From a virus, in IMG/VR virus record IMGVR_UViG_3300042556_001714, positions 1 through 39,731 of that record: a stretch of DNA of 39,731 bases; one strand, written 5' to 3'. The translations under genes and the position numbers were made by a program. Below the pieces are notes generated by a model, which was not told the DNA's origin, did not search any database, and worked only from the letters and a program-made list of their open reading frames with translations. Of this stretch, positions 29,429 through 32,016 are shown one piece after another; the stretch's first letter is position 1; the number at the start of each line of letters is the position of its first letter.

Positions 29429-29863
29429 TTAGTCGGCGGTGCAGGACTCGTGCCCGTTGCCTTGCATGCACCAGCACTCGGGGAAGCCAAAATCCCACCC
29501 GGCGGCCGTGACGGTAATGACAGACCCGTCGGGGAACACGGCTTTCCAGTCGGGAGAATAGCGCCAGTCGCGATTTTCGACCATCCCGTCATGCTCTTGC
29601 ACCAGGTCGTCCAGGGTGCGGCCGTCGTCTGTGCGCCAGCGCGTGCCGTCGTGCCCCAGCTGGCGCGCGACAGCATCGGCCGCTGTGCCGCATGCGGGGG
29701 CGGCCGTGTCCACATAGACGGCGGGGATATCCGCGCGCGGGAGGAGGGTAGCGGCATCGTCCAGGTAGTCGGCAATGATGCGCGCGGCGGCGGTAGGATC
29801 GGCGGCACCGTCCACCACAAACGACACGGTGACGATATGCGAAACGGCGGGAGCTTGCGGCAT
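29429..29863 (-). CDS. Last leftward accessory gene, unknown
   Basis: The 144-residue protein starts at the ATG at 29863 directly after the shared leader motif TGAGGAATCCCGCC. The ORF extends further upstream but not plausibly. An N-terminal alpha/beta part (HIVTVSFVVDGAADPTAAAR, AARIIADYLDDAATLL) is followed by an acidic middle (TRWRTDDGRTLDDLVQEHDG) and a Cys- and Trp-containing C-terminus (CWCMQGNGHESC). No family is recognised. The first part resembles a small RRM-like or ferredoxin-like fold. It is probably an accessory, host-interaction gene, since it belongs to the leftward operon. Confidence 0.65.
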   Translation of the reverse strand: MPQAPAVSHIVTVSFVVDGAADPTAAARIIADYLDDAATLLPRADIPAVYVDTAAPACGTAADAVARQLGHDGTRWRTDDGRTLDDLVQEHDGMVENRDWRYSPDWKAVFPDGSVITVTAAGWDFGFPECWCMQGNGHESCTAD

Positions 29864-29889
29864 GGCGGGATTCCTCAGGGGAGGTGGCG

Positions 29890-29920
29890 CCCCCCGGCGG
29901 GATGCCGAGGGGCTGGGGGG
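29890..29920 (-). promoter_or_regulatory. Leader hairpin of the 29863 gene
   Basis: CCCCCCGGC (29890-29898) pairs with GCTGGGGGG (29912-29920), nine pairs with one G-U, in the short gap before the leader ribosome-binding site. Comparable hairpins precede the 30518 and 31646 genes, so this appears to be a repeated regulatory or RNA-processing element. Confidence 0.5.
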
Positions 29921-29924
29921 ATGC

Positions 29925-30518
29925 TTAAGCGTTGCCGCTTTGCTCGGTGTCCCATTGTAGCAGTTCGGCCCAATAGCGGTGGGTACGGTTCCAGCACTGG
30001 AGATCCTGCTCCCGGGTAGGGTCGACATACGCGCCGCTATCGTGCCATTCCGCGATGGCGGGCGCGTCCATGCGCCAGGCATGCGCCAAACGGGCGATTT
30101 GTTCGGCAAGGCGGGCGACACTGGCCCGGCGGCGCGTCCAGACGTAGACGCGGGGGAGCGTCCACAGTTCGGCGTCGTCGTGCGGGGGGATGACCCCATA
30201 GGCGGGCACGCTCCCCCGGGAATCGGCGGTGCCGGTTGTATGATGGCCGATAACTTCCCCATTCAATACCCACGCGTCCACGGAATACGCTAGATCAATG
30301 GACCCGTCAAACCCTGCCCCTTGATACTGGCCAGCGATGGCGTCCACCTCGCGCCCGGTCGGCCCATCGGTCCATACAACGTTCAAGGATCCGCCCCCGG
30401 ATCCTTGGTATACCCGGAACTTCACGGCGGGAAACGCGCGCCGAAGACCCGCGCGGATCATGCGCGCGACCTCGGTAACAGTCAAACGGCGGGAAACTTC
30501 CTTAGCGGTGGTGGTCAT
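29925..30518 (-). CDS. LPD29-domain protein
   Basis: The 197-residue protein follows the shared leader (TTTCTCGGGAT-type variant on the + strand). Residues 13-90 match the LPD29 pattern (large polyvalent protein-associated domain 29): TVTEVARMIRAGLRRAFPAV, KFRVYQGSGGGSLNVVWTDG, then a second half with VDAIAGQYQGAGFDG and YSVDAWVLNGEVI. LPD domains occur in large phage and plasmid polyproteins that enter the new host cell and are thought to help against host defences. Here the domain stands in a small protein. The C-terminal half (about 115-190) has a basic Trp segment (YVWTRRRASVARLAEQI) and helices. The biochemical role is unknown. Confidence 0.8.
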   Translation of the reverse strand: MTTTAKEVSRRLTVTEVARMIRAGLRRAFPAVKFRVYQGSGGGSLNVVWTDGPTGREVDAIAGQYQGAGFDGSIDLAYSVDAWVLNGEVIGHHTTGTADSRGSVPAYGVIPPHDDAELWTLPRVYVWTRRRASVARLAEQIARLAHAWRMDAPAIAEWHDSGAYVDPTREQDLQCWNRTHRYWAELLQWDTEQSGNA

Positions 30519-30550
30519 GGCGGGGTTTCTCGGGATGCGGTTTGGACCTA

Positions 30551-30583
30551 CGGGGGCGCGCCGCGGGAGTGCGTGCGCCCCCG
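30551..30583 (-). promoter_or_regulatory. Leader hairpin of the 30518 gene
   Basis: CGGGGGCGC (30551-30559) pairs perfectly with GCGCCCCCG (30575-30583) around a 15-base loop, upstream of the shared leader and start codon at 30518. It is of the same type as the hairpins before 29863 and 31646. Confidence 0.5.
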
Positions 30584-30613
30584 GGGACAGTATGCGACTA
30601 GGCTAACGTCACG

Positions 30614-30787
30614 TCAAGAGTGATGCGCGGGAGCATGCGCGGGGGGATAGTCGCGCGCGGGGTCTGCCGCTAGGTCGCGCGCGAGGACGCGGAGGGGGAT
30701 ATCCCCGTAGGCAGCCAGCAAGGCGCGCAGGTCCACCAGGCGGCCGGAAAGGTGCAAGCGGGGGGAAGAGGAGGGGGAGGGGCGCAT
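30614..30787 (-). CDS. Possible small leftward gene
   Basis: The 57-residue ORF reads MRPSPSSSPRLHL, then a normal-looking segment (VDLRALLAAYGDIPLRVLARD) and a His/Ala/Pro-rich end. The bases before its ATG are C/T-rich with no ribosome-binding site, and it lacks the leader shared by its neighbours. It fills most of the 348-base gap between the 30518 and 30867 genes. It may start at an internal GTG or be a chance frame; the rest of the gap holds G/C homopolymer-like runs and the 30551-30583 hairpin. Confidence 0.3.
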   Translation of the reverse strand: MRPSPSSSPRLHLSGRLVDLRALLAAYGDIPLRVLARDLAADPARDYPPAHAPAHHS

Positions 30788-30866
30788 AAGGGGAGGGGAG
30801 TAGGGGAGGGGAGGGGGGAAGGGGCGCCCCCGGGATAGGTGAGGCGCCCCCCTGCAGCTGCAGGGA

Positions 30867-31646
30867 CTAGACCGGGATGACGAATCCGGACGTATCCTTT
30901 CGGGCGGAGCCTTTCGCCCGGAGCCCGACGACAACCCCGGCCGGATCGGTGAACCGGAAGTCGGTCACGTCGCCGTCGATCACCCGATGCCCGTTCCATG
31001 ATTCCGGTAGGGGCTGGCCTTTCTTCGTGCTGAAAACGGCCGCCACATTCCGGCCGGCCTGCAGGACGCGCACGCTGGCCAGTCGGTTGGCTAGCGTCTC
31101 GGCCCGACTAAAGGTTAGGGAATAGTTGGGGATGTCCCATTCCATGCGTTCCGGGTGCTTTGTGTAATCCCAAAACCGGATCTTGGGGAATGCCTCAAAA
31201 ATGTTCGCCAACCGGCCGTTTTTCCGCATGCATGCAACCGCCGTCCAATCTAGATCGCTGGTGCCATTCGGCCGTGCGGCCGGGATCCCGTCCACCGCGC
31301 GCGCTTGACGCTCGAGGAGCTCAAGATCCGCAACGGCCGCGCGCATAAAGGCAGCCGACTGCTCAAAGAGCAACCGAGTGCGACGAATCCGGGCGACCTG
31401 AATCGTATTCCCCTGCAGCAACTCCCCCCGGGGGGAAAATTGCGCCCCGATTCCCCCCCGCCCCGCACTATTTAGGCAGGACGCCGTGCAACCTTTCGTC
31501 CGGGCCCCGCATGTTTCGCGGCCGGATATGCGCCCCGGGGACAGGTGCAGCACGGCCGCTACAATGGGGCGCCAACTATCGGGCCCCGGCTTAGCCAGTT
31601 TGGGGGACGATTGTGCGGGTGTGAGTAAACGAAACGAACTGGACAT
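30867..31646 (-). CDS. GP88-family protein
   Basis: The 259-residue protein follows the shared leader TGAGGAATCCCGCC. It matches the 'gene product 88' family known from mycobacteriophages and many other phages: KLAKPG.., then LHLSPGRISGRETCGARTKG, CTASCLNSAGRG, followed by IQVARIRRTRLLFE and a region of Trp/Tyr-containing beta strands (KIRFWDYTKHPERM). The C46, C53, C57 cluster is the hallmark. The function of GP88 is not established; the Cys cluster suggests metal binding or a radical or nucleotide-modifying reaction. It is the largest gene of the leftward operon. Confidence 0.85.
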   Translation of the reverse strand: MSSSFRLLTPAQSSPKLAKPGPDSWRPIVAAVLHLSPGRISGRETCGARTKGCTASCLNSAGRGGIGAQFSPRGELLQGNTIQVARIRRTRLLFEQSAAFMRAAVADLELLERQARAVDGIPAARPNGTSDLDWTAVACMRKNGRLANIFEAFPKIRFWDYTKHPERMEWDIPNYSLTFSRAETLANRLASVRVLQAGRNVAAVFSTKKGQPLPESWNGHRVIDGDVTDFRFTDPAGVVVGLRAKGSARKDTSGFVIPV

Positions 31647-31673
31647 TGGCGGGATTCCTCAGGGTAGGGTTGT

Positions 31674-31700
31674 GGGGGGCGCCCGGAGTGGACGCCCCCC
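31674..31700 (-). promoter_or_regulatory. Leader hairpin of the 31646 gene
   Basis: GGGGGGCG (31674-31681) pairs perfectly with CGCCCCCC (31693-31700), in the 62-base gap between the 31709 stop and the 31646 start. It is of the same type as the hairpins at 29890 and 30551. Confidence 0.5.
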
Positions 31701-31708
31701 GGTGGCGA

Positions 31709-31903
31709 TTAGGCAGGGACCATGCAGCCGTTTACGTAGCGCACCGGAAGACGCAACCCGTCGGCGATGTCGGCATAGTGCTTCGCGTCCCGGGCGGTGG
31801 CGGCGCACCGGTGCATAGCGGCCAGCGTAGCAGCGCACCATGCGGGCTCAGTGCTGGCCAGAGCGGTAACTCGGTCCAGTCTCGCGCGATCAGCTTTGGT
31901 CAT
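31709..31903 (-). CDS. First leftward accessory gene, small unknown
   Basis: The 64-residue protein starts at the ATG at 31903, after GAGGAGCCCCGCC, the shared leader variant. A further upstream ATG at 31957 lies at or before the expected RNA start and is unlikely. It is a helical Ala-rich protein (KADRARLDRVTALASTE, AWCAATLAAMHRCAATARDA) with two Cys, ending LPVRYVNGCMVPA. Being first behind a perfect promoter, it should be made early and in quantity. No family is recognised. Confidence 0.65.
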   Translation of the reverse strand: MTKADRARLDRVTALASTEPAWCAATLAAMHRCAATARDAKHYADIADGLRLPVRYVNGCMVPA

Positions 31904-31961
31904 GGCGGGGCTCCTCGTGTATCGGGTGGCGCGCCGTCCGGGGATTCCGGGGCGCACCTAC

Positions 31962-31990
31962 ATTATACCTGTACCGGGCCAGTCTGTCAA
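31962..31990 (-). promoter_or_regulatory. Perfect consensus sigma70 promoter of the leftward operon
   Basis: On the minus strand, TTGACA (31990-31985), a 17-base spacer and TATAAT (31967-31962) match the consensus exactly. RNA would start near 31955, giving a leader of about 50 bases before the 31903 gene. It is the strongest promoter in the window and implies expression immediately on entry by unmodified host RNA polymerase. Confidence 0.9.
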
Positions 31991-31997
31991 TAGTAGA

Positions 31998-32016
31998 GTG
32001 CAACCCCGTGCAACCC
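31998..32016. repeat. Direct repeats GTGCAACCC with 10-base period
   Basis: GTGCAACCC occurs at 31998-32006 and 32008-32016, one helical turn apart, just upstream of the -35 element of the leftward promoter. This is the place for an activator or repressor to bind. Confidence 0.65.

What the first reader, a model, noticed from the sequence alone, without database searches (positions are those of the whole stretch)
29429..32016. Leftward accessory operon with perfect promoter and repeated leader module
All four supported leftward genes (31903, 31646, 30518, 29863) start after close variants of TGAGGAATCCCGCCATG, and three have a GC-rich hairpin just before it. They are driven by an exact TTGACA-N17-TATAAT promoter and end at a hairpin. 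A GP88-like and an LPD29-like protein are included. A repeated leader-gene cassette array against the main transcription direction looks like an early host-takeover or anti-defence island that grows by cassette gain.
Basis: partly seen in the sequence, partly recalled or inferred. Interest (0 to 1): 0.75.

Follow-up and report, generated by a model that had tools for sequence, protein, structure and literature searches.

The report
Swappable-gene operon with hairpin start modules
A phage known only from metagenomes carries a small backward-facing operon in which nearly every gene is introduced by the same hairpin-plus-start-signal module, and closely related phages carry quite different genes clipped in exactly between these modules, so the operon works like a fixed rack for interchangeable accessory genes.

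Summary
All four leftward genes have the GAGGAATCCCGCC-ATG leader (4 matches, 0.09 expected). All four, not three, have a GC-rich hairpin just upstream. The TTGACA-N17-TATAAT promoter is the only 12/12 sigma-70 site in the 39.7 kb. Close relatives (TerL 92-98% identical) settle the cassette question. Promoter, hairpins and leaders are conserved, but the ORFs between them are replaced: a 64 aa gene by an unrelated 83 aa gene, GP88 by a clamp-like gene plus a 71 aa gene or by a phrog_2554/DUF7227-type gene, LPD29 by 68 and 142 aa genes. DNA homology stops at the start codon (0 to 9 nt) and resumes at the stop codon (within 14 nt). More distant phages (TerL about 65-71%) keep a leftward operon in the same place; 18 of 22 distinct intergenic gaps hold such a hairpin (0.4 expected). 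So: a modular accessory operon whose frame is conserved and whose ORFs are swapped. It works like T4 PeSL cassettes and resembles the SAS/ESAS of cluster K mycobacteriophages, but is a member of neither by the features tested. Early expression is plausible; the host-takeover or anti-defence role has no evidence. New variant of a known kind.

The parts
31962..31990 (-). Promoter P1, TTGACA-N17-TATAAT, predicted to drive the leftward operon
   Evidence: 12/12 match, the only one in the window; 12/12 in L006, TATACT in L140, TACTAT (N18) in L099
31928..31958 (-). Hairpin of module J1; begins at about the predicted +1 of P1
   Evidence: fold -23 to -25 kcal/mol; conserved in L006 and L099
31901..31917 (-). 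Leader J1, CGAGGAGCCCCGCC-ATG
31709..31903 (-). Cassette ORF 1, 64 aa, no known family
   Evidence: same gene in L099 and L023 (dN/dS 0.13), unrelated 83 aa gene in L006/L007, unrelated 63 aa gene in L140
31674..31700 (-). Hairpin of module J2, 11 bp stem, loop ACUCC
   Evidence: conserved in L006, L099 and L140 although flanking ORFs can differ
31645..31661 (-). Leader J2, TGAGGAATCCCGCCA-ATG
30867..31646 (-). Cassette ORF 2, GP88 family (PF17338), 259 aa
   Evidence: replaced by clamp-like plus 71 aa genes in L006 and by 50 aa plus phrog_2554 genes in L099
30821..30850 (-). Hairpin 3' of GP88
   Evidence: fold; region conserved in L099
30614..30787 (-).
   Evidence: conserved protein in L006 and L099
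30589..30617 (-). Promoter-like site P2, TTGACG-N17-CATACT
   Evidence: conserved in L006, L007 and L099
30551..30583 (-). Hairpin of module J3
30516..30532 (-). Leader J3, CGAGAAACCCCGCC-ATG
29925..30518 (-). Cassette ORF 3, LPD29 domain (PF18847), 197 aa
   Evidence: dN/dS 0.12 against L006; replaced by 68 aa and 142 aa genes in L099
29889..29913 (-). Hairpin of module J4, loop AUCCC
29861..29877 (-). Leader J4, TGAGGAATCCCGCC-ATG
29429..29863 (-). Cassette ORF 4, 144 aa, no known family
   Evidence: homologous 152 aa gene in L006 with divergent C-terminus; unrelated 75 aa gene in L099
29377..29407 (-). Hairpin at the operon end, no U-tract
   Evidence: fold -30.3 kcal/mol, z -3.4

Best explanation
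This is a leftward accessory-gene operon built as a fixed frame with exchangeable ORFs. A strong host-type promoter (P1, perhaps helped by P2) makes a leftward transcript. Between most ORFs lies a module made of a GC-rich RNA hairpin (8-12 bp, 5-6 nt loop), about 10-20 unpaired bases, and a strong Shine-Dalgarno/start signal (GAGGAATCCCGCC-AUG). Shown: the frame is conserved while the ORFs between modules are replaced by unrelated ones, with homology ending at start and stop codons. Inferred: the modules give each incoming ORF a ready ribosome site and a punctuated, stabilised transcript, and their similarity lets homologous recombination between co-infecting phages swap ORFs. Inferred: the operon is expressed early by the host polymerase and carries non-essential, host-specific helper genes.
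For: Leader and promoter far above chance. Relatives with 88-92% identical flanks share promoter and modules but not ORFs. Start-side homology ends relative to ATG: 0, -1, 0, +9, 0, 0, -1, +3, 0 nt; stop-side restarts 0, -10, +5, 0, +5, -14 nt (read; alignments). 64 aa and LPD29 genes evolve under purifying selection, dN/dS 0.12-0.13. Distant relatives keep the operon location with other contents, and 18 of 22 distinct leftward gaps carry a hairpin of 8 bp or more against 0.4 expected. Stems differ but stay paired: orthologous L168/L174 hairpins differ by A-U to G-C, L146 has U-A where others have C-G. GP88 genes in other phages mostly lack the hairpin (11 of 80 loci have any 8 bp stem, one of them this phage), so the module belongs to the operon, not to the gene. 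In mycobacteriophage Phighter1804 GP88 sits near the right genome end among leftward genes; Pleft there is the early lytic promoter of cluster A phages (PMC5712189).
Against: No expression data: 'early', 'one transcript' and 'stabilising' are untested. Recombination at the modules is inferred from products only. Leaders within one genome are not more alike than orthologous leaders (edit distance 2.4 against 2.0), so there is no sign of gene conversion between modules. The small ORF (30787-30614) and the last gene of L006 lack the module. Few close relatives (about six independent contigs).
Confidence: 0.7

Rival explanations
1. The modules are static regulatory sites, as proposed for SAS/ESAS: a host or phage protein binds the DNA inverted repeat or the RBS region and co-regulates the genes. 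ORF exchange is ordinary phage mosaicism that merely has to respect them.
For: Same anatomy as SAS (RBS-overlapping conserved motif) plus ESAS (upstream inverted repeat) (PMC3203893, PMC7302621). Motif conservation extends past the Shine-Dalgarno (CCCGCC).
Against: Cluster K inverted repeats do not keep RNA pairing and carry SigA promoters (PMC3203893, PMC11373665); here arms stay paired across changes and J2 and J4 have no promoter match. Stem sequences differ widely between phages, unlike a conserved DNA-protein site.
Confidence: 0.3
2. The hairpins are transcription terminators or attenuators, so each ORF is a partly separate transcription unit.
For: Stable GC-rich stems directly after stop codons, and one closes the operon.
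Against: None has a U-tract or scores as an intrinsic terminator. In relative L146, inspection shows a hairpin with a T-run at the operon end (about 2380-2345) but none at its internal hairpins. J2 and J4 have no promoter downstream to restart.
Confidence: 0.15
3. Integron-like cassette array: hairpins are attC-type sites used by an integrase.
For: One promoter, same-strand ORFs, hairpin between ORFs.
Against: No tyrosine recombinase in the window (control positive in 14 of 14 genomes). Hairpins are short, nearly perfect stems. The hairpin stays in place while either neighbour is replaced, rather than moving with one ORF.
Confidence: 0.02
4. Early host-takeover or anti-defence island.
For: Strong host-type promoter, small variable ORFs, opposite orientation to all other genes.
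Against: No PADLOC hit for ten cargo proteins (that library holds defence genes rather than their inhibitors). Cargo families known by name are not anti-defence; clamp-like and AAA/VWA-like genes occur in the operon.
Confidence: 0.25
5. The leader is just the preferred start context of the host and the hairpins are GC-rich noise.
For: GC 67%, some stems expected; two rightward genes have leader-like starts.
Against: Leftward gaps 18/22 with hairpin against 0.4 in dinucleotide shuffles; the leader is at 4 of 4 leftward genes but about 2 of 43 rightward genes.
Confidence: 0.03

Closest known systems
PeSLs (promoter early stem-loops) of T4-like phages: Arbiol et al. 2010 and Comeau et al. 2014, Genome Biol Evol, cited through PMC4503421 (originals not held)
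   Same: Repeated intergenic modules with a stem-loop, in a region of intense ORF shuffling, thought to mediate gene exchange between related phages.
   Different: PeSLs join a terminator to an early promoter, so each gene restarts transcription. Here J2 and J4 have no promoter; the stem-loop is joined to a conserved ribosome-binding/start signal. GC-rich 40 kb phage with no close isolate, not T4-like.
SAS/ESAS of cluster K mycobacteriophages (PMC3203893, PMC11373665) and cluster EF Microbacterium phages (PMC7302621)
   Same: Short conserved motif over the RBS of several non-structural genes, with an upstream inverted repeat or conserved element, on genes of different families.
   Different: Motif sequence differs. 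Cluster K ESAS arms do not keep RNA pairing and contain SigA promoters; here arms stay paired and two of four modules have no promoter. Here ORF replacement at module borders is documented.
Leftward early arm of cluster A mycobacteriophages (Pleft; PMC5712189)
   Same: GP88 gene near the promoter-proximal end of a leftward operon of small genes.
   Different: No hairpin-leader modules known to me there; cluster A has stoperator repeats with another role.
Integron gene cassettes (own knowledge)
   Same: Promoter followed by same-strand ORFs separated by hairpins.
   Different: No integrase found, and the hairpin stays with the position rather than with one ORF.

Membership tests
SAS/ESAS | conserved asymmetric motif overlapping the RBS, a few bp from the start codon, at several non-structural genes | tested here: met
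   GAGGAATCCCGCC directly before ATG at 4 of 4 genes
SAS/ESAS | consensus GGGATAGGAGCCC (cluster K) or GGGAAAGGACCCC (cluster EF) | tested here: not met
   leader sequences; consensus from PMC3203893, PMC7302621
SAS/ESAS | 17 bp imperfect inverted repeat whose arms do not keep RNA pairing (cluster K) | tested here: not met
   arms pair despite stem changes (hairpins were partly chosen by pairing, the orthologous L168/L174 difference is free of that bias)
SAS/ESAS | SigA-like promoter inside each ESAS (PMC11373665) | tested here: not met
   promoter match only at J1 and, weakly, J3
PeSL | stem-loop in the intergenic module at the site of ORF shuffling | tested here: met
PeSL | early promoter within each module | tested here: not met
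   none at J2 and J4
PeSL | terminator function of the stem-loop | not testable with these tools
   no U-tract; needs RNA data
Integron cassette array | tyrosine integrase (IntI) nearby | tested here: not met
   PF00589 absent from the window
GP88 (PF17338) | profile match above curated cut-off | tested here: met
   119.7 bits against 24.4; fold matches GP88 proteins
LPD29 (PF18847) | profile match above curated cut-off | tested here: met
   61 bits against 27
Anti-defence island | a gene shown or predicted to block a defence system | tested here: inconclusive
   no PADLOC hits, but that library lists defence genes, not inhibitors

The most novel reading that the evidence does not exclude
The hairpins form an RNA regulon: stems vary across the phage family while the 5-6 nt loop stays AC-rich (ACUCC, ACACC, ACCAC, AUCCC), so a phage or host RNA-binding protein or ribonuclease would recognise the loop and process or protect every cassette, making any ORF dropped into the frame automatically regulated.
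Probability: 0.2. Interest if true: 0.65.

Novelty: new variant of a known kind. Interest (0 to 1): 0.5.

Why it matters
Phage accessory regions turn over fast, but how a newly arrived gene is expressed at once is mostly unclear. Here frame and cargo separate cleanly: the same promoter, hairpins and start signals hold different genes in near-identical phages, with borders at the start and stop codons. That makes the question testable with a handful of constructs, and gives a sequence handle for finding cargo genes of unknown function in uncultured phages.

Tried and rejected
Module carried by GP88: rejected. Integron: rejected. Concerted evolution of leaders: suggested by the shared one-base-shorter leader (GAATCCGCC) in L006 but not supported overall. 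Loop pairing with the downstream Shine-Dalgarno: works for ACUCC with GGAG but not for ACACC loops (inspection), rejected. GP88 and the DUF7227-type protein as one superfamily swapped in one slot: profile comparison weak, model of the latter poor (pLDDT 34); the viral fold search with the GP88 model gives one DUF7227 match at E 0.012; left open. GP88 function: no significant PDB match. Host: one MAG contig labelled Verrucomicrobia (L179) is too weak; host unknown. No close isolate by terminase or primase-helicase.
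Full report
WHAT IS THERE. The window is a 39,731-base virus record whose other predicted genes run rightward: head protein, tail fibre, exonuclease, primase-helicase, small and large terminase, portal, with tRNA-Gln and tRNA-Trp. Between the replication genes (ending near 27.9 kb) and the small terminase gene (32373) lies a leftward operon. Its leader TGAGGAATCCCGCCATG has 4 matches with up to 3 mismatches, all on the minus strand before the four genes; 0.09 are expected. The promoter at 31990-31962 is a perfect TTGACA-N17-TATAAT and the best in the window; the next scores 10/12. 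All four leaders follow a GC-rich hairpin. The first hairpin begins about where transcription from P1 should start (inference from the spacing).

A fifth small gene (30787-30614) is conserved in two relatives. A second promoter-like site, P2 (30617-30589), is conserved before the LPD29 slot. Two rightward genes just left of the operon (27005, 27708) have leader-like start signals without an evident hairpin.

CASSETTE EXCHANGE. Contig 3300034166_000594 (L006), 88-92% identical in the flanks, keeps P1, P2 and modules J1 to J4, but has an 83 aa gene for the 64 aa gene and a clamp-like gene plus a 71 aa gene for GP88, each with hairpin and leader. Contig 3300044730_001263 (L099) keeps the 64 aa gene but has a 50 aa plus a phrog_2554 gene in place of GP88, and 68 aa and 142 aa genes in place of LPD29. 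Contig 3300037520_000718 (L140) has yet another first gene. Comparing window, L006 and L099, DNA homology ends 0, -1, 0, +9, 0, 0, -1, +3 and 0 nt from the ATG, and resumes 0, -10, +5, 0, +5 and -14 nt from the stop codon (positions read; alignments). The frame is therefore positional: it stays while either neighbour is replaced. The 64 aa and LPD29 genes, where shared, evolve under purifying selection (dN/dS 0.12-0.13); the last ORF is less constrained (0.60).

WIDER FAMILY. A terminase search gave 45 related contigs down to about 63% identity. Many have a leftward operon at the same place with other genes: GP88 as an early gene of the operon (L147, L165), an AAA-like plus VWA-like pair (weak domain hits; L148, L154, L156, L162), DUF7192 (L153), DUF7227 (L168). 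Taking intergenic gaps of 40-160 nt from gene calls alone, 18 of 22 distinct leftward gaps contain a perfect GC-rich stem of 8 bp or more; dinucleotide shuffles give 0.40 on average and at most 3; rightward gaps give 2 of 8 (first version). Stems differ between phages but stay paired, for instance GGGGGCGGC/GUCGCCCCC, GGGGGUGGC/GCCACCCC and CCCCUAGC/GCUAGGGG. The full-pairing count is biased because the scanner selected paired hairpins; the A-U to G-C difference between orthologous L168 and L174 hairpins is not, though it is a single event. Most loops begin with AC.

HOW IT MOST LIKELY WORKS. Shown: conserved frame, exchanged ORFs, borders at codons. Inferred: the hairpin punctuates or protects the mRNA and the strong start site gives each ORF its own translation; homologous modules serve as recombination sites. 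Internal hairpins lack U-tracts, while inspection of relative L146 shows a hairpin with a T-run at the operon end, which speaks against simple terminators. The early timing is an inference from the host-type promoter and from the position of GP88 in mycobacteriophage Phighter1804, near the right genome end among leftward genes, since Pleft is the early lytic promoter in cluster A phages (PMC5712189).

COMPARISON. Two known things come near. PeSLs of T4-like phages are stem-loop plus early promoter modules that mediate shuffling (cited in PMC4503421; the original papers were not readable here). SAS/ESAS of cluster K and EF phages are RBS motifs with an upstream repeated element (PMC3203893; PMC7302621); in cluster K the arms do not keep RNA pairing and carry promoters (PMC11373665). 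The present module combines the stem-loop of the first with the start signal of the second, without an internal promoter at J2 and J4. It works like a PeSL frame but fails defining features of both, so it is filed as a new variant of a known kind.

CARGO. GP88 is common in phages: 264 annotated phage records and at least 475 IMG/VR stretches. The model is confident (pLDDT 92), matches other GP88 and Gp37/Gp68-like phage proteins, and has no solved relative. Three invariant cysteines (C46, C53, C57) would fit a metal or Fe-S site (inference). No cassette protein tested has a convincing PADLOC match. The anti-defence reading therefore remains a guess.

VERDICT. Observation confirmed; the cassette part of the interpretation supported; the function part not. 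Interest 0.5.

Noticed in passing
window 27005 and 27708 (+): Two rightward genes beside the operon have leader-like start signals (CCGAGGATTCGCC-ATG, CCAAGGAGCCCGCCG-ATG) without an evident hairpin.
   Followed up: partly
window 30867-31646 (-): GP88 has three invariant cysteines (C46, C53, C57) and its model resembles Gp37/Gp68-like phage proteins; weak, non-significant matches to radical-SAM-like viral proteins recur in the list.
   Followed up: partly
L006 4827-5447 (+): A clamp-like (DNA polymerase processivity factor) 206 aa protein sits in the slot where the window has GP88; PHROG 3007, which it matches best, is labelled RusA-like resolvase, so one label may be wrong.
   Followed up: partly
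window 29429-31903 (-): Operon genes fit the phage's codon usage far worse (about 0.05-0.1 log-odds per codon) than rightward genes (about 0.3-0.4), which suggests foreign origin.
   Followed up: no
L154 2400-5482, also L156, L162, L148 (-): AAA-like plus VWA-like gene pair of about 500 and 530 aa in the same operon position of several distant relatives.
   Followed up: partly
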